The translations under genes were made by a program, and so were the position numbers. A DNA stretch of 64,000 bases, from assembly GCF_004765785.1 (NCBI RefSeq), contig NZ_SBIT01000007.1:248001-312000 (forward strand), read 5' to 3'. The notes under the pieces were generated by a model. It did no database searches. It was not told the origin of the DNA and was given only the letters and a program-made list of their open reading frames with translations. Of this stretch, positions 2,881 through 63,115 are shown piece by piece (the first letter of the stretch is position 1; each line of letters opens with the position of its first letter). The DNA is from Halorussus ruber (GTDB taxonomy: Archaea; Halobacteriota; Halobacteria; Halobacteriales; Haladaptataceae).

Positions 2881-3777
2881 TTACTCCGGTTGGTTCCTGT
2901 ACGCTTCGATTTCCGGGCGGTACCCCTCCCGATAGGTCGGATAGTTGAAATCGTAACCGAGGCTTCGTAGCTTCTCGTTCGAACATCGCTTGCTGGTCAG
3001 CAGGCGGCGTCTGGCCCGCTCGGAGAGGTCGTCGGCGTCGAGTCGCTCCTCGACGGTCTGCTTCGGGGGGCGCTCTCGGTTGCACTCGTCGGCGAGCCAA
3101 TCGGCGAACGCCCACCGCGAGACGGGTTCGTCGTCCGCGACCAGCACGACCTCGCCGCGAGCGAGGTCCTGCTCCAGCAGGAACCGCACCGCGCCCGCCG
3201 CGTCGTCGCGGTGAATCATGTTCAGGTAGCCCTCGGTGACCGGCCCCTCCAGATACCGCTCCAGTCGGGTCCGACCGGGACCGTAGATGCCCGCGAACCG
3301 CGCGACGGTGCCGTCGAGGCCGTTCTCGGGTGCCTCCTCCAGCGCCACGCGCTCGGCCTCGGCCAGCACTTCGGTTTTGTCGGTTTCGGGACTCAACGGC
3401 GTCTCCTCGTCCACCCAGTCGCCGCCGTGGTCGCCGTAGACGCCCGTGCTGGAGGTGTACACCAGTCGCTCCGGCGGGTTCTCCCGCGCCCCGAAGTGTT
3501 CGACGGCGGTCCGAAGCCCCTCGACGTAGACCTCGCGGGCAGCCTCGGCGTCTCTCCCGCCGGAACTCGCCGCGAAGACGACGGCGTCCACGTCCGGCAC
3601 CGCCGCCAGCGTCTCGCCGTCGGTCACGTCGGCCCGGACCGCCTCGAATCCGGCCTCCTCGATGGCGTCGAGGCCCGACTCCGAGCGCCGGACGCCGACC
3701 GCGCGGTGGTCCTCCGCTGCGAGTTGGCGACCGAGTTCGAGTCCGACGTAGCCGCATCCGAGTATCACCACGTTCAT
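2881..3777 (-). CDS. SDR-family NAD(P)-dependent epimerase/reductase
   Basis: A 298-residue cytosolic protein opening with a Rossmann dinucleotide site (VVILGCGYVGLELG, residues 3-16). It matches atypical extended SDRs of the YeeZ-like group: the TSSTGVYG segment follows the central strand, but I see no standard YxxxK catalytic pair. The GIYGPGR motif typical of extended SDRs is present at about residues 180-186. Substrate is unknown. It is co-directional with the DHH gene, 61 bp upstream of it, and could share a transcript. The ATG at 3777 gives the normal start immediately before the first beta strand. Confidence 0.85.
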   Translation of the reverse strand: MNVVILGCGYVGLELGRQLAAEDHRAVGVRRSESGLDAIEEAGFEAVRADVTDGETLAAVPDVDAVVFAASSGGRDAEAAREVYVEGLRTAVEHFGARENPPERLVYTSSTGVYGDHGGDWVDEETPLSPETDKTEVLAEAERVALEEAPENGLDGTVARFAGIYGPGRTRLERYLEGPVTEGYLNMIHRDDAAGAVRFLLEQDLARGEVVLVADDEPVSRWAFADWLADECNRERPPKQTVEERLDADDLSERARRRLLTSKRCSNEKLRSLGYDFNYPTYREGYRPEIEAYRNQPE

Positions 3778-3897
3778 GTTCGAATCTTTGCGCGAGCGGG
3801 GATAACTCCCGCGACAGCGAGTGAGAACAGAGACGATAGAACAATTGTTTGGGAAACGTATTTATTTCTTTAGCCAATATTCTGGTTTCTTTCAATC

Positions 3898-4137
3898 AGA
3901 TGGCTTCGCCTCCGCGATGGCAGGCCGACCAGCCGCCAGCGGGCGCTCGACTGAGGAAACCACCAGCGAACGCTCGGCTGAACTTTCTTCGGGTGGGATG
4001 AAGGGGCCGCCCGGTCGCGTTTACGTGGTCGTCTCAGCGTGGCCCTATTTCGCGCCGGGCTGTGCGGAGAGGCGCGAAATATCCCGCTGAGCGACCGCGA
4101 CCGGGCGGGGGCTTCAGAAGACAACATCACGGTTCAG
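3898..4137 (+). repeat. Interspersed palindromic element, family A, copy 1
   Basis: This fills much of the 503-bp gap between 3778 and 4281. It begins with degenerate 26-bp units (GACCAGCCGCCAGCG-like). An inverted pair GGCCGCCCGGTCGCG / CGCGACCGGGCGGGGGC follows, enclosing a nested hairpin: outer TCAGCG (4034-4039) with CGCTGA (4085-4090), inner ATTTCGCGCC (4047-4056) with GGCGCGAAAT (4071-4080). It ends in GGGCTTCAGAAGAC. Related copies lie near 41.9, 42.8, 46.0 and 62.9 kb. No gene is seen in the gap. Confidence 0.8.
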
Positions 4138-4146
4138 TTGCGGTAG

Positions 4147-4182
4147 TTGACATCCTCCCCGCGCTAAAGGGCGGGGCTTTCT
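4147..4182. repeat. Solo IS200/IS605-type terminal palindrome
   Basis: TTGACATCCTCCCC followed by a hairpin (CCCCGC at 4157-4162, GCGGGG at 4171-4176) and GGGGCTTTCTCC. Sequences of this form mark the ends of IS200/IS605/IS1341-group elements and the related palindrome-associated miniature elements in haloarchaea (recalled knowledge). No transposase or TnpB frame is nearby, so this looks like a relic or miniature element directly abutting family A copy 1. Confidence 0.6.
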
Positions 4183-4281
4183 CCTTGCACTTCCGTAACG
4201 AGTTCCTGACCATCATCTACTCCTCTCAAACCGACTCCCCGAACCTCAACTTTAAGACCGAAGACGGGACGAACCCGGCCC

Positions 4282-4746
4282 ATGTTCGACGCACCAGTCG
4301 AGACGTGGTACCTCTGGGTCGGCCTCGCTATCGCCAGCACCGCCGCGGTCGGTCTCGCGGCCACCCTGCCCCGAGCGCCGCCGCCGGACGCCGCCAGCGC
4401 CGCCCAGACCGTCGATTCCGTCGCGGCGAGCGCCCACTCGACCACCGGCGTCCACCCGCTGTCGGCCGACGCCGCGCGAATCGGTCCGTATCGAATCTGG
4501 CTTCGGGACGACGGCCGGTCGGGCCACGCGGCGCTGGCCTACGGTCCCGTGACGCCCGTTCGGCGCGACACCGCGCTCTGGGACGTGCTTCGGGGCGCGC
4601 CGCCCGAAGCGGCGTTCGGCACGCCCGCCGACTTCCGTCGGGCCGCGGCCGAAGCCCGCGACAGGACGCCCGAGTGGCGCTCGACCGACCGACTGACCGT
4701 CCGGCGCGTGACGTGGGAGGGCGTCGATGTCACGCTGGTCGGATGA
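4282..4746 (+). CDS. Pilus-cluster membrane-anchored protein (DUF7283-like)
   Basis: A protein of 154 residues with an N-terminal hydrophobic helix (about residues 9-31, WYLWVGLAIASTAAVGLA) and a soluble remainder, suggesting a bitopic protein facing outside. It is the first of four genes that overlap one another by 4-20 bp, so the block is almost certainly one operon. From memory, this order matches the haloarchaeal families DUF7283 to DUF7286 found beside type IV pilus ATPase and PilC/TadC genes; I could not check. The role is probably a minor pilin or assembly factor. It begins about 100 bp after the IS605-like palindrome. Confidence 0.75.
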   Translation: MFDAPVETWYLWVGLAIASTAAVGLAATLPRAPPPDAASAAQTVDSVAASAHSTTGVHPLSADAARIGPYRIWLRDDGRSGHAALAYGPVTPVRRDTALWDVLRGAPPEAAFGTPADFRRAAAEARDRTPEWRSTDRLTVRRVTWEGVDVTLVG

Positions 4747-5146
4747 GGAGAATCCTCGCGCGCAGGTCGAACCGCTGGCGGCGCTGGTCGCGGTCTTCGC
4801 CGTTGGAGTCGCGCTGACGGCCTACACTGGAGTCCTCAACGCAGCTCTGCCGACGCCCGACCGGAATCTCGCGGAACCGACCGTCGAGCGAGCCGAGCGC
4901 GCGGTCGGCGACGAGAGCGGCGTCCTCGCTCCCGATGCGCTCTCCTCGGGCCTCAGCGCCGGTCCCGACGGCTACCGACTCAATCTCACGCTCCAAACCG
5001 GCGGGCGGACGTGGCACGCCGGGCCAGTCCCACCAAAAAATTCGGATTCCGCCGACGCCCCTGATTCTACCCGACGCACAGTCAGCGTCCGCGTCGCTCC
5101 CGGTCGGATTCGCCCGGGGCAACTCCGCGCGGAGGTCTGGTCGTGA
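4727..5146 (+). CDS. Pilin-like protein of the pilus cluster (DUF7285-like)
   Basis: A protein of 139 residues. After a short charged leader the sequence RAQVEPLAALVAVFAVGVAL (about residues 11-30) forms a hydrophobic helix preceded by Arg-Ala-Gln. That is compatible with a class III (prepilin) signal cleaved between Ala and Gln by a PibD-type peptidase; the cleavage is inferred. The rest is a soluble, secreted-type domain. It overlaps the preceding gene by 20 bp and the next by 4 bp, indicating translational coupling. Likely a minor pilin or pseudopilin; no structural function can be assigned. Confidence 0.75.
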   Translation: MSRWSDEENPRAQVEPLAALVAVFAVGVALTAYTGVLNAALPTPDRNLAEPTVERAERAVGDESGVLAPDALSSGLSAGPDGYRLNLTLQTGGRTWHAGPVPPKNSDSADAPDSTRRTVSVRVAPGRIRPGQLRAEVWS

Positions 5147-5649
5147 GAGCCATCAGTACCGTGCTGGACGCCTCGCTGTGCCTCCTGTTGGTCTCGGCGA
5201 GCGCGATGACGCTGGCCGGGACGCCGGCGAGAGACGCCGAAACCGGGGTCGGCCCGGATTCCGCGACCGGTCCGGACTCGGCAGACGAGACCGCCGAACT
5301 GGTGGCGACCAGCACCGCCCGCGTGACCTACGAGGAGGACCACGAAGCCACCAAGACCATCCACGACACGCTGGCGGGACTCCTCGCCAGCGCGCTCCGG
5401 GCTGACGCTCGACAGGACGCTCGAACCAACGCCACCGATTTCACTCGCGCCGTCGCCGACGAGGTCACCGCCACGCTCCGGCGCTACACCTCGCCCGACC
5501 TCGGCGTGCAGGTGGTCGCCAGCGAAGCCAGAGTAGGGTCGAGCGACCGAATTTCCGCGGGGAGCGAGCCGCCGCCGGAAATCGACGTTCACGCCGCGCG
5601 GTTCGCCCTCCGCGAGACTCGATTCACCGTCAGGACGTGGTCGGCGTGA
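5143..5649 (+). CDS. Pilin-like protein of the pilus cluster (DUF7284-like)
   Basis: A protein of 168 residues starting at a GTG that overlaps the previous stop (GTGA). The N-terminus RAISTVLDASLCLLLVSASA reads like a pilin-type leader plus hydrophobic helix (residues 2-24). The remainder is Ala, Asp and Thr rich and soluble. It overlaps the next gene by 4 bp through a second GTGA junction. With its neighbours it fits a set of pseudopilins in one operon. There are no enzyme motifs. Its exact function is not recognisable. Confidence 0.75.
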   Translation: MRAISTVLDASLCLLLVSASAMTLAGTPARDAETGVGPDSATGPDSADETAELVATSTARVTYEEDHEATKTIHDTLAGLLASALRADARQDARTNATDFTRAVADEVTATLRRYTSPDLGVQVVASEARVGSSDRISAGSEPPPEIDVHAARFALRETRFTVRTWSA

Positions 5650-8600
5650 GATTCGCCGAGGACCGCCGCGCTCGGGTCCCCTTCGCGCTGGTCGGGGTCC
5701 TCCTGCTGGTCGGAAGCGCGGCCCTCAGCGCCTCGCTCGCGGGGAACCCCGCCCCGCGAACCGACGAGTCGGTCGGCGTCGCAGTCGAGCGGGCCACCGC
5801 GGCCTCCTCGACCGCGCTCCGAGGAGCAGTCGCCCGCGCCGGTCGGCAGGCCGCCCGCCAACCCGTCACCGCCCCGGCGAACACCACCCTCGGGCGCGTC
5901 CTGAACGACTCGACGCCCTATCGGGACTCCCTTCGGATTCGAATCTACCTCGCGGCCCGCGACGCCCTGGATTCGGTGGCCATCCAAGCAAGCGACGTGC
6001 AAGCCTCGGTCTCGCTCCCGCCCGTCTCGAACGCCACCGAACTCCGGCGGGCCAAGCGCCGGGTGAGCATCGAACCGGCCAGCGGAAACAGAAGCGCCGA
6101 CGCCGCCGAGAGTTCGGGTCTGCGTGTCCGAATCAGCAATATCACCGTCACCGCGACCCGCGGTAGCACCGCGACCCGCGGTAGCACCGCGACTCGCGGC
6201 GAGACCGCGACTCGCCGCAGTACCGCAACCCACGGAAATCGAATCGTCGAGCGCGAGGAGTTCTCGCCGACGCTGGTCGTGGCGACCCCGGCGCTGGCGC
6301 TCCACGAGCGCACCGAGCGGTTCGAGTCTCGGCTCAACCGCGGTCCGCTCGCGCCCGGCCTCGGCAGGCGACTCACGGCGCGACTCTACGCCGTGGGGTG
6401 GGTCCGGGGCTACGCCCAGTACGGTCGCGCGCCGATTCAGAACGTGGTGGCCAACCGCCACGTCGAACTCGCCGCGAACGGCGGCCTCCTGCGCGAACAG
6501 CGCGCCGTCTTCGGCCGGAGCGACCCCCGAGGTCGGCGGGCGCTCGGGTGGGCCACCGCCAGAGTCGGCGCGACAGACCTGCTCACGGCCGCGAACCATC
6601 GCCACGGCTCGGCCCGGACCGACCAACTCCTCGCCGCCGCAAAGCAGTACCAGAAGGAGAATCCCGTGCCCGGCGGGGTGACGGCCGACCGGTCGAGAAA
6701 AGCCGCGAGGAGGAAGCGAAACGCCGCCCTCCCGGTCGGCGTCAACCGGACCGCGGACCGGGCCTTCTCGGACCTCGTGAGGGGCCAGCAGGGGCCGAGC
6801 CTCGACGAGATTCTGCGGTCGTCCTACGCGGTCGATGCCCGGGTCGTCGCCGCAGTCCGGCGGGAGGAGCAGGAGAGCGAACCGCGCCCGGAACCGGCCT
6901 CGCCGGGCGCGAACTGGACGCTCGCGGGAACCGAGGTCCAGACGACGACTCGGGTCGAGGCCGCGAGCGGACCACTGTCGGAGACGCCGCAGGAGTGGCA
7001 TCTCCTTTCCCACGAAACGCGCCGAGTCGTCCGGACCCGCGCGCTGGTCGCCAACTGGTCGCGGGGCAACGAATCTCGCCGGACGGTCCAGCGCTGGTCT
7101 GAGACGTTCGCGGTCCGAGTGGGGGTCGCAGGCGACCACGGCGTCGGTGGCGAGGAGGGAGACGTTTCACCGCCCTCGAACCCGGTTGCGGAGGTCCACG
7201 AACGAGGCGGCGCGCTCGACGGCCCGAATCTGGCGGGGATACCGGAGCGCGCCACCCAGCAGTTGGTCGCCGACCGCGGCGGCTACGACGCGCTGGCCCG
7301 GCGAGCAGTCGCCGGAACGCTCGACACCCGGTCCGAGGAGGTCGCGGGTCGGCGGCCGCCGGACCTCCGCGAGTGGGCCTACCGGGACGTGGCGGCCCTC
7401 CGCGAGGAGGTCCGGAACCTCTCGGTCGCGGTGCCCCGGCGGAAGGCCCTCGGCGAGCGCCCGCCTGCCGCGAAACTGGCCCGGAAAGTCAGCGCGCGCC
7501 GGGCAGACCTCCTCGACGCTCCGGCGCGCTACGACGGGGTGGCGGACAGAGCGAGAGTCGCGGCGCGGGCGGCCTACCTCGACCGAGTCGCGGCGAGGCT
7601 GGAGGCACGCGCCGACCGGGAGAACCGGACGCGAGTCGGCGTCGAGGAAGCGCTGGCAGATGCTGGCGGGTCACTCGACGGGGCGCGCCGGACGCTCCGC
7701 GCTCGGACGACGCCAGCAACGCCGCCGCCTCGGCCGATGGATGCCGACGGGCCGGGCGCTCCGGTCAACCTGAGCGTGACGGGCGCGCCGCCCTACCTCA
7801 CGCTGGCGAAGTTGGAACACGAGGAGGTCCGGGCGATACCCGAGGGCGAGCGTCGGGCACTCCTCGCGGCGCGGAACCGGAACGTCTTCGCAATGCCCTT
7901 CGGGGACGCCGCCGAGAGGGTGGCGTCGGAAGTCGTGGGCGAGGGAAGTTCGAGGCGGGTCAGCCTCCGGGCCGGGGCGGTGGCGTTGCGGGCCGCGAAC
8001 CGGACGCTGGCCGAGCGCGAGAACCGGAGTCTGGCGCGTCGGCGGGACCGGCTTCAGCGGTCGCTCGCCGAGTCGATGGCGGAGGCGAGGGCAATTCTGG
8101 TCGCGGAACTGGCGCTGGCTCGGTTCGACCTCCCGCGAAGCGAGCGCCGGGCGGCGGTCCGGGCAGGGTTGGCGCGGTGGAACACGACTGCTGGCCGGAC
8201 GCTGGCGGTGGCGAACGGCTCTGCGGCCGCGGCCATTTCCGAGGAGGTGGTTCGGCGTCGCCCGGCGCTCCGGCGGGCCGACAGGCGCGACTGGGTCGCG
8301 CTCCGGGCCGAGTTGGCGGTCGAAGCCGCGAGTCGGCAGGTCGAGGGGCCGCGCCGGAGGCCAGTCAACCGGACCACGACCGCGACCCAGCGACTCGCCG
8401 AGACCGCGCTCAAGCAGGCGATTACGTCCGGCGTCGAGAACGCGACCGAGTACGCCAGCCAGCGGTGGTTCGGCGAGGTCCTCGGGTCGGTCCCGGCCGG
8501 GTTGCCGGTCGCGCCGGTGCCGGGCTACTGGTACGCCACGGTCAACGTCTGGACGGTCGAAATCTCGGGCCAGTACGCCCGGTTCGCGGTCAGCGCGCCG

Positions 8601-8819
8601 CAGGGGCCGCCCGGCGGGGCGGTCCGATACGTGAGGGAGAACGCGACGGTCAGGGTTGACGTGGACGGTGATGGTGAGGAGGACCTCCTCGGGCGCACCG
8701 CGCCGGTCGCCTTCGAGACGGGGACGACCGTCGTGGTTGTCGTGCCGCCGGGGCCGCCCGGCGTCGGCGACCGGGGCGGGAACCGGGACGAGACCTCGCC
8801 GGGCTGGACATCGGGGTGA
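5646..8819 (+). CDS. Giant pilin-like/secreted protein of the pilus cluster (DUF7286-like)
   Basis: I chose the GTG at 5646, which overlaps the preceding stop as GTGA exactly like the upstream junction; a GTG at 5637 would add three residues. The product is 1057 residues. A basic N-terminus followed by VPFALVGVLLLVGSAALSAS forms one hydrophobic helix. A very long Arg-, Ala- and Glu-rich ectodomain follows, with many Asn-X-Thr/Ser sites that could be N-glycosylated. Six-residue repeats occur near residues 169-198. A conserved-looking C-terminal segment (about 950-1045) contains a DVDGDGEEDL acidic loop that could bind calcium. It probably assembles with the pilus machinery; the role is inferred from context only. 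Confidence 0.75.
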   Translation: MRFAEDRRARVPFALVGVLLLVGSAALSASLAGNPAPRTDESVGVAVERATAASSTALRGAVARAGRQAARQPVTAPANTTLGRVLNDSTPYRDSLRIRIYLAARDALDSVAIQASDVQASVSLPPVSNATELRRAKRRVSIEPASGNRSADAAESSGLRVRISNITVTATRGSTATRGSTATRGETATRRSTATHGNRIVEREEFSPTLVVATPALALHERTERFESRLNRGPLAPGLGRRLTARLYAVGWVRGYAQYGRAPIQNVVANRHVELAANGGLLREQRAVFGRSDPRGRRALGWATARVGATDLLTAANHRHGSARTDQLLAAAKQYQKENPVPGGVTADRSRKAARRKRNAALPVGVNRTADRAFSDLVRGQQGPSLDEILRSSYAVDARVVAAVRREEQESEPRPEPASPGANWTLAGTEVQTTTRVEAASGPLSETPQEWHLLSHETRRVVRTRALVANWSRGNESRRTVQRWSETFAVRVGVAGDHGVGGEEGDVSPPSNPVAEVHERGGALDGPNLAGIPERATQQLVADRGGYDALARRAVAGTLDTRSEEVAGRRPPDLREWAYRDVAALREEVRNLSVAVPRRKALGERPPAAKLARKVSARRADLLDAPARYDGVADRARVAARAAYLDRVAARLEARADRENRTRVGVEEALADAGGSLDGARRTLRARTTPATPPPRPMDADGPGAPVNLSVTGAPPYLTLAKLEHEEVRAIPEGERRALLAARNRNVFAMPFGDAAERVASEVVGEGSSRRVSLRAGAVALRAANRTLAERENRSLARRRDRLQRSLAESMAEARAILVAELALARFDLPRSERRAAVRAGLARWNTTAGRTLAVANGSAAAAISEEVVRRRPALRRADRRDWVALRAELAVEAASRQVEGPRRRPVNRTTTATQRLAETALKQAITSGVENATEYASQRWFGEVLGSVPAGLPVAPVPGYWYATVNVWTVEISGQYARFAVSAPQGPPGGAVRYVRENATVRVDVDGDGEEDLLGRTAPVAFETGTTVVVVVPPGPPGVGDRGGNRDETSPGWTSG
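6150..6239 (+). repeat. Five tandem 18-bp units inside the giant pilin-like gene
   Basis: Five consecutive 18-bp units encode TATRGS, TATRGS, TATRGE, TATRRS and TATHGN. The first two are identical at DNA level (ACCGCGACCCGCGGTAGC) and later ones diverge gradually. The reading frame is kept, so copy number could vary by slippage or recombination without breaking the protein. Confidence 0.9.
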
Positions 8820-8874
8820 CCTGGAATTCGGAACTCGCCGGTTGATTTTCCACCCGGCGCGTGCTGACTCGTCT

Positions 8875-9043
8875 TTTCTTCCGGCGCGCGCTGGCGGACC
8901 CTCTTGTGGTCCGCCATCGTCGTGCGAGGGCCGAGGACCGCAGCGAAGCGAGGACCGCAGGCGGTTGGGGAGGCGTGAGGCTCGCAGTCGCGGTGCTGTG
9001 CGGTGGCGGTGACTCCAAGGATCAAGCCTGAAGCTAGCTCCCT
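8875..9043 (+). repeat. Interspersed element, family C, copy 1
   Basis: This lies in the 422-bp gap 8820-9241. It begins CCGGCGCGCGC, then a perfect stem-loop (TGGCGGACC / GGTCCGCCA, 8892-8916, loop CTCTTGT), a GCGAGG-rich body, GTGCTGTGCGGTGGCGGTGACTCC, and ends with TCAAGCCTGAAGCTAGCT (9022-9039). The same 18-bp end occurs at 15193-15210 and 34772-34789. The centre of the stem-loop is inverted relative to copy 34650. No gene is seen in this gap. Confidence 0.8.
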
Positions 9044-9079
9044 CGAATCATCCATTCCAAGCAGTTGGAGTCAAGGTTT

Positions 9080-9125
9080 CGAAAGCCCTCGCGCGGTTCG
9101 CGCTCGCCCTTTCAGTCCGCCAGGA
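9080..9125 (+). repeat. Interspersed short repeat, family B, copy 1
   Basis: CGAAAGCCCTCGCGCGGTTCGC followed by CTCGCCCTTTCAGTCCGCC. A near-identical copy is at 11025-11070, and the first 22 bp occur inverted near 46113-46138. It directly follows family C copy 1, so the two families can form composites. Confidence 0.75.
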
Positions 9126-9241
9126 GTCGGCTATTTCACCGAGCGAAAAACGTAGATGGCGGTTCGTCTCTAAACACTCTCCCGACGAGTCACCGCTATC
9201 GAAGTGAAACCCCTTTCAATCGCGGTCACGTCGATTCGGGT

Positions 9242-9670
9242 ATGCTCTACGACGATATCGAGGAGCCCGAGGCCACGTCGCCCGACGAACTCCGCGAGGA
9301 GTACGCCGCCGAACTCGCCGCAATCGTCGAGGCGGAGGGCGTCGATGCGGTCGCCGACCGGACCGGCGTGGACCGCGAGACGGTCGAGGCGCTGGCCGCG
9401 GGCGAGGCCGGTGACGTGCAACTGGAGGACGCCGCCGCCGTCGCCGCGCTGGCCGAGGACGCGCCGCCGCAGGACGCCATCGTGGCCGAGGTCCGCGACA
9501 ACCTCCTGATGGGGATGACCACGGCGGTCCTCGACGTTGACACCATCGCGGCCGAAATCGACGCCGACATGGACGGCAAGCAGGTCCACCAGAAAGTCGA
9601 GGGCCGCGCGCCGATGACCCTCGGAGAGTACGCGACCATCTATCACTTCATCGCCAGTCGCCAGCAGTGA
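9242..9670 (+). CDS. Conserved haloarchaeal hypothetical protein (DUF5791-like)
   Basis: A protein of 142 residues, very acidic, predicted soluble. The ATG at 9242 is preferred over an in-frame upstream start at 9065 because the extra 59 residues are basic and translate repeat sequence. The first part (about 20-70) reads like a small helix-turn-helix (DAVADRTGVDRETVEALAAG), and a second helical part follows. From memory it resembles the Halobacteria-only family DUF5791; this was not checked. It sits between two blocks of the pilus cluster but shows no link to it. No catalytic residues are recognised. DNA binding is only a suggestion from the helix pattern. Confidence 0.75.
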   Translation: MLYDDIEEPEATSPDELREEYAAELAAIVEAEGVDAVADRTGVDRETVEALAAGEAGDVQLEDAAAVAALAEDAPPQDAIVAEVRDNLLMGMTTAVLDVDTIAAEIDADMDGKQVHQKVEGRAPMTLGEYATIYHFIASRQQ

Positions 9671-9728
9671 GGCCGCGCTGGAGAATCAAAGGATTAAATA
9701 ACTGCTCTAAAGCAATATTTTGTTTTCC

Positions 9729-42588: not shown

Positions 42589-42715
42589 ACTGGTGGGTTC
42601 GGGGGCCGGACACAAGTAGTTCGGCGACCATGGGATTGACTATTTCTCGACCTCGCCTCGGGGTGAGAACGAGTGTGAGCCGCCGGAAACGGGACACGAA
42701 CCGCAGAGCCAGGAG

Positions 42716-43085
42716 TGCTGGCGTCTTTTTGAAGCCCCCGCCCGGTCGCGGTCGCTGAGGGACCCCTATCCGTCGCAACTACGTCCGTCGGATATGTCGC
42801 TCAGCGACTACAGTGTACGCCGGGAGACAACCCGCGTCTCCCGAGGTCACACTCGCACCGGGAGACAAACCGCGTCTCCCGAGCCGTCACCTCACTTCGT
42901 TCGGTGAGACTCCGCTCGCGTGACCGCGACCGGGCGGCCCCTTCATCCATCCCACGGCGGTTGGTCGGCCGACGTTCGCTTGTGGTCTGGTCGGCCGACG
43001 TTCGCTGGCGGTTGACGCACCGGGCGCGTCCGGCGCTCGACCGGCCTGCCGTGGCGGCGCTGAACGCCGCTTGGCGCAGGAGGCG
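42716..43085 (-). repeat. Interspersed element, family A, copy 3 (inverted)
   Basis: In the 579-bp gap 42589-43167. On the minus strand it shows degenerate 26-bp units with CGGCCGACC, the CCGCCCGGTCGCG motif (42938-42950 region), then two CGCGTCTCCCG blocks, a hairpin with outer GTCGCTGAG/CTCAGCGAC (42751-42759, 42800-42808) and inner TATCCG/CGGATA (42767-42772, 42789-42794), and the CGGGCGGGGGCTTCAAAAAGAC tail near 42724-42745. The rest of the gap is AT-rich near 43110-43160. No gene is seen. Confidence 0.75.
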
Positions 43086-43167
43086 GCTAGTCGGTCGAAG
43101 CAGAGGAGAAATAATTACAATTTATTGAGAAATGCTTTTCTATATTTAATAATCAAATACTTCCCTC

Positions 43168-44037
43168 TCACTCCTTGCCTTCGATTCCGACTACCTTCGC
43201 GTCCCCGTCCAGAAGAACCCGCATCTCGTCGCCCTCGCAGGCGACGGTCACAGCGAGGTCCCACGGGTCCTCCGACCGGACCTCGACGGCGTCGTCGCTC
43301 ACGACGAATGGAAGTTCCCAGAGCGGCCGACTCGTCACGTCCACGCCGCGCTCGTAGAAGAACGAGACGACCGCAGGGTGGTTGAGGACCGTCTCGCCGG
43401 GCGTGGTCCACATGAATCCGCCGCAGTGTTCGCAGGTGTGGGCGACGTAGGGGATTCTGTCCTCCTCGCTGCGGTATCGGAGTTCGCCGGGCATCCGTCC
43501 GGCGCACCAGACGCAGACGTCCCGGTTCATCAGCATCACGTGGTGGCGCACCCACTGGTCGAACGTCTCCAAGCGGTCGGCGTCCGCGTCCCGCGATTCG
43601 ACCGCGCTCGGCGGGAACTCCACGGTCATGTACTCGCGCTCGCACTCCGGGCAGGTGATTCGGAGGACCGCCTCGTCGTACGACATTTCGAGCGAGGTCC
43701 CGCAGTCGAGGCAGTCGCTGTCGATGTCGCGCGGTTCGAGTTCGGTCTCCCGCGTGAACAGACCCGCCACGATGGTCCGGTAGAGGAGTTCGCCGGGATA
43801 GGTCAGACTGTAGCCCTCGTCGGTTCGCTCGACGAACTGCCCGACCAGCGTGTCGAGGTGGTAGTTGAACTTGCCGGAGTCTCGAATCCCGGCGCGCTCG
43901 CGGAGTTGCGAGAAGGTCAGTACCTCCTCGTACTCGTCGTAGGGGGCCTCGGCCAGCGCCCGGAGGATGGTCATCCGGGTCTCGTCGGCCACGACCCTGA
44001 ACACGTCGGCGGGGTTCGGTTGGTCAGATTCGCTCAT
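43168..44037 (-). CDS. ArsR-type winged-helix regulator with zinc ribbons
   Basis: A protein of 289 residues. The N-terminus PADVFRVVADETRMTILRAL, with FNYHLDTLVGQFVERTDEGY as recognition helix and wing, is an ArsR/HTH_20-type winged helix. Then come four C-x2-C pairs (DCLDCG, CPEC, CVWC, CEHC), which should form two zinc ribbons or one zinc site per pair. The rest (about 220-289) is a beta-rich domain of unknown role. From memory this resembles a Halobacteria family labelled DUF7351. Target genes are unknown. It is divergent from threonine synthase over 152 bp. Confidence 0.85.
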   Translation of the reverse strand: MSESDQPNPADVFRVVADETRMTILRALAEAPYDEYEEVLTFSQLRERAGIRDSGKFNYHLDTLVGQFVERTDEGYSLTYPGELLYRTIVAGLFTRETELEPRDIDSDCLDCGTSLEMSYDEAVLRITCPECEREYMTVEFPPSAVESRDADADRLETFDQWVRHHVMLMNRDVCVWCAGRMPGELRYRSEEDRIPYVAHTCEHCGGFMWTTPGETVLNHPAVVSFFYERGVDVTSRPLWELPFVVSDDAVEVRSEDPWDLAVTVACEGDEMRVLLDGDAKVVGIEGKE

Positions 44038-44189
44038 TCACGTGTTGTCGTGGCACCCCCACAGTTAAAAGGGTATTTCGGATTACAGGACCAGTTGCGG
44101 CCCGTCGGTTCGCACTCGACCGGAGTACAGAAGACCTGCGAGAGTGAGAAAGGGGCAACGATTAGTCGCTCGACTCCGAACCTGCGCGC

Positions 44190-45383
44190 ATGGAAACCAC
44201 CGACGCCTTCGTCGGCCTGACGTGTGTCGATTGCGGCGAGACGTTCGACGCCGAGGAGACCACGCATCGGTGTCCCGACTGCGACGGAATCTTGGACCCC
44301 GACTACGACTACGACGAAATCGACATCTCGCGCGAGGACCTCGAGTCCCGGCCCTTCGAGTCGATGTGGCGCTACGAGGAGTTGCTTCCCTTCCCGCAGA
44401 GCGCCGCCGTCTCGATGGACGAGGGCGCGACCCAACTCGTGGAGTGCCCGCGACTCGCCGACGAGTTGGGCGTCGAGCGCGTCCTCTTCAAGGACGAGGG
44501 GCGCAACCCGACCGGGACGTTCAAGGACCGCGGTCAGACCGCCGCTATCACGGCGGCCGTCCAACACGGCGCGACCGACGTGGCGCTGAACTCCGCGGGC
44601 AACGCCGGGCAGGCCGCCGCGGCCTACGCCGCCCGCGCCGGACTCGACTCGCACGTCTTCCTGCCCTCGCGGGCCGGGTTCACCAACAAAGCGATGGTCA
44701 ACGTCCACGGCGGCGATATGAAGGTCGTGGAGGGTCGCATCGGCGACGCCGGGGCGGCCTACGAGGACGCGATGAAAGACCACGACGACTGGTACTCGGT
44801 CAAGACGTTCGTCACGCCCTACCGCCACGAGGGCAAGAAGACGATGCTCTACGAAATCGTCGAGCAGAACGACTGGGAGGTCCCCGACGCGGTGGTCTAC
44901 CCGACCGGCGGCGGCGTGGGTCTCGTCGGGATGCACAAGGGGGCGAAGGAACTCAGAGACCTCGGCCTCATCGACGAGGTTCCGTCGATGTACGCGGCCC
45001 AGTCGTCCGGATGCGCGCCCATCGTGGAGGCGTTCGAGGAGGGCGAGGAGGTCCACGAGGTCTGGGAGACGCCCGACACCATCTGCGGCGGCATCGAGAT
45101 TCCCGACCCCGGCGCGAGTCCGCTCGTCCTCGACGCGCTCGAAGAGAGCGACGGCGGCGCGGTCGCCACCAGCGACGAGGACATCCTCGACAGCGCAATC
45201 ACGGTCGCACAGCACGAGGGCTTAGAGATGGGCGCGACCTGCGCGGCGGCCGCCAGCGGCGCGTGGGAACTCGCCCGCCGCGGCGAGTTCGGCGAGGACG
45301 ACACCATCGTCCTGCTCAACACCGGCGCGGGCAACAAGGACGACGACGTCCTCCGAAGCCACCTGATGAGTAAAGGAATCTAG
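44190..45383 (+). CDS. thrC: Threonine synthase
   Basis: A protein of 397 residues. An N-terminal zinc ribbon (Cys12, Cys15, Cys28, Cys31) precedes the fold-type II PLP domain. NPTGTFKDRG holds Lys112, the PLP Schiff-base lysine. SAGNAGQAAAAYAARAG is the phosphate-binding and substrate segment, and VVYPTGGGVGLVG the PLP-phosphate loop. It converts O-phosphohomoserine to threonine. It overlaps the tail of a short minus-strand gene by 4 bp. Several ThrC-like paralogues exist in Halobacteria, and a related cystathionine or dehydratase role cannot be fully excluded. Confidence 0.92.
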   Translation: METTDAFVGLTCVDCGETFDAEETTHRCPDCDGILDPDYDYDEIDISREDLESRPFESMWRYEELLPFPQSAAVSMDEGATQLVECPRLADELGVERVLFKDEGRNPTGTFKDRGQTAAITAAVQHGATDVALNSAGNAGQAAAAYAARAGLDSHVFLPSRAGFTNKAMVNVHGGDMKVVEGRIGDAGAAYEDAMKDHDDWYSVKTFVTPYRHEGKKTMLYEIVEQNDWEVPDAVVYPTGGGVGLVGMHKGAKELRDLGLIDEVPSMYAAQSSGCAPIVEAFEEGEEVHEVWETPDTICGGIEIPDPGASPLVLDALEESDGGAVATSDEDILDSAITVAQHEGLEMGATCAAAASGAWELARRGEFGEDDTIVLLNTGAGNKDDDVLRSHLMSKGI

Positions 45384-45939: not shown

Positions 45940-46145
45940 CCGAGCGCGGTTCGCGCCCGAAGGGCGTGGTCGTCTCAGCCGACCCCTATCCGGGCGCGCA
46001 GAACTGCGCGCCCGGATATGTCGCTGAGCGGCCGTCACGTGAGCCAAGCGAGGGTGACCTCGGTAGTCACGGCCCGCGCAGGCCGCAGGCCGAGCAGGAA
46101 TGTCTACCGGCGGCGAACCGCGCGAGGGCTTTCGAGGACATTGCT
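45940..46145 (+). repeat. Composite of family A copy 4 hairpin and inverted family B
   Basis: In the 415-bp gap 45834-46248. A 15-bp perfect stem TATCCGGGCGCGCAG (45987-46001) / CTGCGCGCCCGGATA (46004-46018) sits inside outer TCAGC (45975-45979) / GCTGA (46023-46027), with the family A lead GTGGTCGTCTCAG. After a GCAGGCCGCAGGCCGAGCAGG stretch, the reverse of family B (GCGAACCGCGCGAGGGCTTTCG) ends it. No gene is seen. Confidence 0.75.
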
Positions 46146-62711: not shown

Positions 62712-62825
62712 CTCGGCCGACCAACCGCCAGCGAATGCTCGGCCGACCAACCGCCAGCGAACGCTTGGCCGACCAACCGCCAGCGAACGCTTGGCCGACC
62801 AACCGCCAGCGAACGCTTGGCCGAA
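62712..62825 (+). repeat. Tandem array of 26-bp units
   Basis: Four full units of CTCGGCCGACCAACCGCCAG-CGAAYG type (62712-62737, 62738-62763, 62764-62789, 62790-62815) and a partial fifth. Units 2 to 4 differ from the first at one or two bases. Degenerate relatives lead family A copies 1, 2 and 3. Contiguous, without spacers. Confidence 0.92.
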
Positions 62826-62837
62826 CTCCTCTCGGGT

Positions 62838-63115
62838 GGGATGAAGGGGCCGCCCGGTCGCGGCCGAAGGCCGTGGTCGTCTCCGCGAGCAACTATCCGC
62901 GCCGGGCGGTGCTGAGAGGCGCGGATATCTCGCGGAGCGACCGCCGGGAGACAAACCGCGTCTCCCGAGGTCACGTTCGCTTCGCTCACGTGACCGCGAC
63001 CGGGCGGGGGCTTCAATAGACGTTCACGGCCACGATTCCCCCTTGAATCCCCAATAAAACAAGGCGACTGGCGGGGGCTTCAGGAAGACACCACCACCGC
63101 AATCCCGCTGTTCGC
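62838..63115 (+). repeat. Interspersed palindromic element, family A, copy 5
   Basis: In the 538-bp gap 62677-63214. Lead GGCCGCCCGGTCGCG, then outer stem TCCGCGAG (62882-62889) / CTCGCGGA (62929-62936) and inner stem TATCCGCGCC (62894-62903) / GGCGCGGATA (62918-62927). Then CGCGTCTCCCG, CGCGACCGGGCGGGGGCTTC (62997-63016), and a second tail copy GCGGGGGCTTCAGGAAGACA from 63068. No gene is seen. Confidence 0.85.

What the first reader, a model, noticed from the sequence alone, without database searches (positions are those of the whole stretch)
3989..4110. Family A repeats: hairpins differ in sequence between copies but keep pairing
Four copies share the frame GTGGTCGTCTC...GCGACCGCGACCGGGCGGGGGCTTC, yet the enclosed stems differ. 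Here the inner stem is ATTTCGCGCC/GGCGCGAAAT. At 62894-62927 it is TATCCGCGCC/GGCGCGGATA. At 45987-46018 it is TATCCGGGCGCGCAG with its perfect complement, and at 42767-42794 it is TATCCG/CGGATA. The outer stem also varies (TCAGCG/CGCTGA versus TCCGCGAG/CTCGCGGA). Compensatory change argues for selection on, or templated renewal of, a folded RNA or DNA structure. The interval given is copy 1.
Basis: partly seen in the sequence, partly recalled or inferred. Interest (0 to 1): 0.75.

Follow-up and report, generated by a model that had tools for sequence, protein, structure and literature searches.

The report
Haloarchaeal mobile repeats with covarying hairpins
A salt-loving archaeon carries more than a hundred scattered, mobile copies of a short DNA repeat whose paired stems have changed letters over and over while staying matched, so the folded shape of one strand (DNA or its RNA) is what evolution keeps, which makes an almost unstudied kind of mobile element open to test.

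Summary
The genome (Halorussus-like haloarchaeon, 4.3 Mb) has at least 134 copies of a ~115-nt unit: outer stem P1, optional mini-hairpin, middle stem P2, internal loop, inner stem P3, conserved tip. Among 67 cores with the commonest tip there are 33 different P3 and 33 different P2 arms, 88-97% of cells paired. On ungapped alignments with a tree-based null, all 11 significantly covarying column pairs lie in the predicted helices. Mismatches are strand-biased (G.T and G.G tolerated, A.C and C.C not), and mini-hairpin tips on that same strand are C(GNA)G/C(GNYA)G, loops known as extremely stable in DNA. So one single strand folds; single-stranded DNA is favoured over RNA, not proven. All 106 copies examined are intergenic without preferred orientation; most sites are empty in syntenic relatives; copy number varies from 0 to over 80 within the genus: mobile, non-autonomous. 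The genus has no reverse transcriptase, and copy-rich species lack Y1 (IS200/RAYT) transposase, so the mobiliser is unknown. Hairpin modules are also swapped between copies. Closest known: bacterial REPINs and Haloquadratum SMRs; neither fits fully. Not in Rfam; found in 53 of 391 haloarchaea.

The parts
4000..4019 (+). Copy 1, P1 5' arm GAAGGGGCCGCCCGGTCGCG
   Evidence: sequence; pairs with 4096-4115 in the fold
4027..4096 (+). Copy 1 core: P2 (from 4027, bulge at 4032, pairing with 4083-4096), internal loop, P3 (4046-4056 with 4071-4081), tip 4057-4070
   Evidence: CM R1 hit 89.8 bits; fold
4096..4115 (+). Copy 1, P1 3' arm CGCGACCGGGCGGGGGCTTC
   Evidence: sequence
42731..42944 (-). Copy at 42.7 kb: frame I on the - strand with inserted hairpin modules; its core (42750-42809) is inverted, reading on the + strand
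   Evidence: + strand CM hit 31.9 bits
45942..46133 (+). Copy at 45.9 kb: frame II, mini-hairpin GCCC-GAA-GGGC (45955-45965), core 45966-46035 with palindromic tip GCGCAGAACTGCGC, 3' inserts, P1 3' arm ending CTTTC
   Evidence: site empty in relatives
62843..63014 (+). Copy at 62.8 kb: P1 5' arm 62843-62862, mini-hairpin GGCC-GAA-GGCC 62862-62872, core 62873-62944, inserted hairpins 62945-62994, P1 3' arm 62995-63014
   Evidence: site empty in relatives
62713..62830 (+). Tandem ~26-bp repeats CCGCCAGCGAACGCTYGGCCGACCAA directly left of the hairpin; shorter versions stand left of many other copies
   Evidence: sequence
63063..63081 (+). Second, partial right end GGCGACTGGCGGGGGCTTC about 50 bp downstream of the first
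   Evidence: sequence; similar tandem right ends occur in Halosimplex

Best explanation
This is a family of small, non-autonomous mobile elements of haloarchaea. When the strand read as GAAGGGG...CTTC becomes single-stranded, it folds into one long, interrupted and sometimes branched hairpin (P1, optional mini-hairpin, P2, internal loop, P3, tip). A recombinase supplied in trans recognises this folded strand, most likely as single-stranded DNA exposed in replication, and moves it into intergenic sites. Because shape, internal loops and tip are read and stem letters are not, stems drift through compensatory change; recombination between copies also swaps and flips whole hairpin modules. Shown here: the covariation, the single-strand bias, the intergenic dispersal, the site differences between species, the module exchange. 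Inferred: that the molecule is ssDNA, that a protein reads it, and what that protein is.
For: At least 134 copies in one genome. Covariation only in helices against a tree null: 11 of 11 significant pairs; 12-17 of about 24 pairs per group have changes on both sides; 88-97% of cells paired. Strand bias: own core G.T 19 vs A.C 2, p = 2e-4; P1, which the search model did not cover, G.T 27 vs A.C 6 and G.G 42 vs C.C 2. Spacer mini-hairpins: 19 of 23 triloops are C(GNA)G and none TNC, against 22 GNA vs 27 TNC in background; tetraloops GTCA and GACA, no GNRA; GNA and GNNA loops with G-C stems make extraordinarily stable DNA mini-hairpins (PMC4686876). 106 of 106 intergenic, flanks 37 >>, 26 <>, 22 <<, 20 ><. 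Sites at 45.9 and 62.8 kb are empty in syntenic relatives, and the relatives' copies sit elsewhere. Copy number 0 to over 80 within the genus, patchy over the class, 53 of 391 genomes. Near-identical cores in different frames.
Against: No mobilising gene found: Y1 transposase is absent from G001, G002, G003, G011, which hold 49-78 copies, and TnpB number does not follow copy number. Exact element ends and any target duplication were not resolved, because relatives are only 80-90% identical. The core G.T/A.C bias is not seen in the other-species set (5 vs 4). G.U in RNA would give the same bias, and few of the GNA hairpins are independent. Copies are divergent, so recent movement was not caught.
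Confidence: 0.5

Rival explanations
1. The fold that matters is RNA: the copies are transcribed and act as small RNAs, mRNA parts or RNA guides, or the RNA recruits the mobilising enzyme.
For: Covarying stems with conserved tip and internal loop look like a structured RNA; G.T over A.C bias; the + strand core is more stable than the - strand as RNA in 86 of 106 copies.
Against: No conserved promoter-like sequence in the aligned upstream flanks, no clear orientation bias to genes, no Rfam match, no GNRA tips among mini-hairpins but GNYA instead. The 3' flank is partly conserved, unlike a free guide.
Confidence: 0.27
2. No selection on shape: hairpin-templated repair, template switching and gene conversion keep rewriting one arm from the other, or exchange whole hairpins, so pairing is a mutational by-product.
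For: Module exchange between frames, inverted core at 42.7 kb, palindromic tips in both orientations 8:8.
Against: Arm-to-arm correction acts on both DNA strands and predicts as many A.C as G.T and as many C.C as G.G; observed 19:2, 27:6 and 42:2. Internal loops and tip stay unpaired and conserved.
Confidence: 0.1
3. The copies are cis-acting host elements such as terminators, insulators or mRNA 3' ends.
For: Strictly intergenic, strong hairpins.
Against: All four gene arrangements occur; sites are not conserved between species; one congener has no copy.
Confidence: 0.06
4. They are remnants of IS200/IS605 elements (PATEs), moved by TnpA.
For: Strand-specific hairpins, and a right end ...GGGGCTTTC like IS605-type ends; one copy lies about 35 bp from an IS605-type right end.
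Against: Only 1 of 106 is near such an end; no separate palindrome near each end; Y1 absent in copy-rich genomes.
Confidence: 0.07

Closest known systems
REPINs / REP elements with RAYT transposases (bacteria; PMC3116915)
   Same: Short non-autonomous, extragenic, many copies per genome, hairpin in ssDNA or mRNA, compensatory changes on both sides of the hairpin reported.
   Different: Archaeal; one three-stem hairpin with swappable modules and covarying outer arms instead of two inverted conserved 16-mers; no Y1/RAYT in several copy-rich genomes.
SMR-A small mobile repeats of Haloquadratum walsbyi (PMC3119063)
   Same: About 110 bp, long inverted ends, haloarchaeal, tens of copies, mode of mobilisation unknown.
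   Different: SMRs are mostly >95% identical within a type and insert in IS605/PATE palindromes; these copies are highly divergent with covarying stems, and only 1 of 106 is near such an element. SMR sequences themselves were not compared.
PATEs / IS200-IS605 elements (PMC3119063)
   Same: Palindromes that matter on one strand, no evident target duplication.
   Different: No separate near-terminal palindromes at both ends; no TnpA in many host genomes.
Structured non-coding RNA families (Rfam)
   Same: Conserved loops with covarying stems.
   Different: No Rfam match; over 100 dispersed, mobile copies per genome; no conserved promoter seen.

Membership tests
REPIN/RAYT system | Dispersed extragenic hairpin element in many copies | tested here: met
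   106 of 106 intergenic, at least 134 copies
REPIN/RAYT system | Two inverted copies of a conserved REP 16-mer | tested here: not met
   Outer arms exist in many covarying versions, 71 P1 types among 147 copies
REPIN/RAYT system | RAYT (Y1) transposase in the genome | tested here: not met
   PF01797 absent in 8 of 18 genus genomes, among them G001, G002, G003, G011 with 49-78 copies
SMR-A (Haloquadratum) | About 110 bp with prominent inverted ends | tested here: met
   Copy 1 spans 116 nt between the outer ends of the P1 arms
SMR-A (Haloquadratum) | High sequence identity between copies (>95%) | tested here: not met
   Full-length blastn relatives of copy 1 are 78-91% identical
SMR-A (Haloquadratum) | Insertion into IS605/PATE palindromes | tested here: not met
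   1 of 106 copies near an IS605-type right end
SMR-A (Haloquadratum) | Sequence relation to HqIRS42/43/55 | not tested
   Their sequences were not at hand
PATE / IS200-IS605 | Near-terminal palindromes at both ends, TnpA-dependent | tested here: not met
   Single central hairpin; Y1 absent in copy-rich genomes
Retroelement (group II intron, retron) | Reverse transcriptase in trans | tested here: not met
   PF00078 absent in all 18 genus genomes
MITE | Terminal inverted repeats of a DDE transposon with target duplication | tested here: inconclusive
   Ends not resolved; no terminal repeat seen at the 62.8 kb insertion
Known structured RNA (Rfam) | Match to a family model | tested here: not met
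Structured RNA in general | Transcription of the element | not testable with these tools
   no RNA data

The most novel reading that the evidence does not exclude
A previously undescribed haloarchaeal mobile element class that moves as a folded single DNA strand, read by shape and not by stem sequence, mobilised by a recombinase that is neither Y1 nor a reverse transcriptase, and that renews itself by swapping hairpin modules between copies.
Probability: 0.33. Interest if true: 0.78.

Novelty: new variant of a known kind. Interest (0 to 1): 0.62.

Why it matters
More than a hundred diverged copies in one genome that all keep the same fold form a natural mutagenesis experiment on a nucleic-acid structure. 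If the folded strand is DNA, it points to an unknown archaeal recombinase that reads shape; if it is RNA, it is a large unrecorded RNA family. A genus in which species hold from 0 to over 100 copies makes a search for the responsible gene directly feasible. It also warns that covariation by itself cannot be taken as proof of RNA.

Tried and rejected
Rfam search at gathering and relaxed thresholds: nothing. Phage records and IMG/VR contigs: none. Reverse-transcriptase route: no RVT_1 in the genus. Y1 and TnpB as mobilisers: presence or number does not follow copy number. Guide RNA of TnpB: the 3' flank is partly conserved rather than free. Insertion into IS605/PATE palindromes: 1 of 106. Exact boundaries: tried from flank profiles, pairwise homology of copies and empty sites; relatives are too diverged. 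Literature search for such repeats in haloarchaea: nothing beyond Haloquadratum SMR/PATE.

Full report
What was checked. Copy 1 runs from 4000 to 4115 and folds far better than shuffled sequence (z = -6.2). The claim that all four copies share both frame motifs is too strong: two outer frames exist (GAAGGGGCCGCCCGGTCGCG...CGCGACCGGGCGGGGGCTTC and GAAAGGGCGAGCGCGGTTCGCG...CGCGAACCGCGCGAGGGCTTTC), and the copy at 42.7 kb carries its core inverted inside frame I.

How many and where. Blastn with copy 1 found 44 stretches in the genome. A covariance model of the 70-nt core, built from 25 copies, found 134 hits among the 150 candidates it was allowed to score, so 134 is a lower limit. Sequence around 106 of them was read. 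The host is close to Halorussus (plasmid matches in three Halorussus species). Within the genus, counts range from 0 (G009) to more than 80; over the class 53 of 391 genomes have matches, with separate expansions in other families. Named carriers include Halosimplex pelagicum and H. carlsbadense, Haloparvum sedimenti, several Halorussus and a Haladaptatus plasmid. No viral contig or phage record carries it.

Anatomy on the + strand: GGYGG-N-A(C)T, GAA(A)GGG, the P1 5' arm, a spacer that is often a mini-hairpin, GGTCG, a one-base bulge, P2 (9 bp), a 3-4/1 internal loop next to CTAT...ATAT, P3 (9-12 bp), a tip (usually CGGGCKGTGCKGAGAG; others GCGCAGWWCTGCGC, CGCAACTACGTCCG, GAGCGAAGCGAGG), then the P2 and P1 3' arms and GGGCTT(T)C. 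Further hairpin modules can stand on either side of the core. P1 holds conserved G.G mismatches, and frame II a tandem G.A motif.

Covariation. Cores with the common tip were grouped by exact arm lengths so that no alignment was fitted to the structure. Null alignments were simulated on a FastTree tree with the parsimony number of changes per column. Across five groups (12-27 sequences each) 11 column pairs were significant over all column pairs and all 11 lie in the predicted helices; 12-17 of 23-25 pairs per group have changes on both sides. There are 33 different P3 and 33 different P2 arms among 67 own cores. The groups are small, three of the five alone give no pair that passes the all-column test, and exchange between copies violates a single tree, so the exact E-values are rough; the total absence of off-helix pairs is the robust part.

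Which strand, and RNA or DNA. Isolated mismatches inside helices of own cores are G.T 19 and A.C 2 (p = 2e-4; distinct contexts 18 and 2). In other species they are 5 and 4. In P1, which was not part of the search model and so is not biased by it, they are G.T 27 and A.C 6, G.G 42 and C.C 2 (distinct contexts 16:6 and 10:2). A double-stranded cruciform or arm-to-arm correction predicts symmetry, so one strand is the folded one. The spacer mini-hairpins have C(GNA)G tips in 19 of 23 triloop cases and no TNC, and tetraloops of type GNYA; background hairpins show no such preference. GNA and GNNA loops on G-C stems are extraordinarily stable in DNA (PMC4686876), whereas GNRA, the usual RNA tip, is missing. 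This leans to single-stranded DNA but rests on few independent hairpins.

Mobility. All 106 copies lie between genes (own gene calls by codon usage), in every gene arrangement. Over about 60 kb of synteny, the copies at 45.9 and 62.8 kb are absent from the matching junctions of several relatives, the relatives' own copies lie elsewhere, and only one junction (42.6/44.2 kb) has an element in both this genome and G002, with entirely different stems. At 62.8 kb the insert, tandem repeats included, truncates the acidic tail of the upstream gene (read from the sequences). So the unit is mobile. No reverse transcriptase occurs in the genus; Y1 transposase is absent in copy-rich species; TnpB number does not follow copy number.

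Module exchange. Distances between copies in P1 and in the core correlate only weakly (Mantel r = 0.13), and five pairs have near-identical cores within different outer frames. Palindromic tips occur equally in both orientations, and one core is inverted. Hairpins are thus exchanged and flipped as units, besides drifting by compensatory change.

Comparison. REPINs are the nearest in behaviour, and compensatory changes were noted there (PMC3116915); but the two-REP design and the RAYT requirement fail. Haloquadratum SMR-A elements are the nearest in host, size and in lacking a known mobiliser (PMC3119063); but homogeneity and IS605 targeting fail, and their sequences were not compared. I file it as a new variant of the miniature hairpin-element kind.

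Verdict. A real, strongly supported, apparently unrecorded haloarchaeal element family with a selected single-strand fold; its mechanism of movement is open.

Noticed in passing
window 2881-9700: In five or more congeners the genes flanking copy 1 lie about 5-6 kb apart and in opposite orientation: copy 1 sits at a breakpoint of a local inversion, perhaps made by recombination between inverted copies.
   Followed up: partly
window 4148-4183: An IS605-type right end (GACATCCTCCCCGCGCTAAAGGGCGGGGCTTTC) lies about 35 bp downstream of copy 1 without a tnpB gene recognised beside it.
   Followed up: partly
L210, L191, L246, L215 (Halosimplex pelagicum), about 100-250 nt upstream of the core: A further conserved, structured-looking domain (GCGCGAGGGATGAG...variable hairpin...GGCTGGGGAGG) and TGCGGT repeats precede the hairpin in Halosimplex but were not seen in Halorussus.
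   Followed up: no
window 63063-63081; L215, L246 downstream of the core: Right ends occur in tandem copies about 50 bp apart in both genera, as if later insertions or recombination left extra 3' ends.
   Followed up: no
window 62945-62994, 42810-42925; many loci: Inserted hairpin modules (CGGGAGACAAACCGCGTCTCCCG; GTCACGTTCGCTTCGCTCACGTGAC) also vary with pairing kept, occur in both orientations and contain the DNA mini-hairpin GCGAAGC.
   Followed up: no
window 42615-44190 and L250:900-1400: This genome and G002 both have an element at this junction, same orientation but different P1, P2 and P3: either an old shared insertion whose stems all changed, or two independent insertions.
   Followed up: partly
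L250 1400-2250 (G002): A long imperfect GTCGTCTCTGTCGTCGGA-type tandem repeat lies directly beside an element.
   Followed up: no
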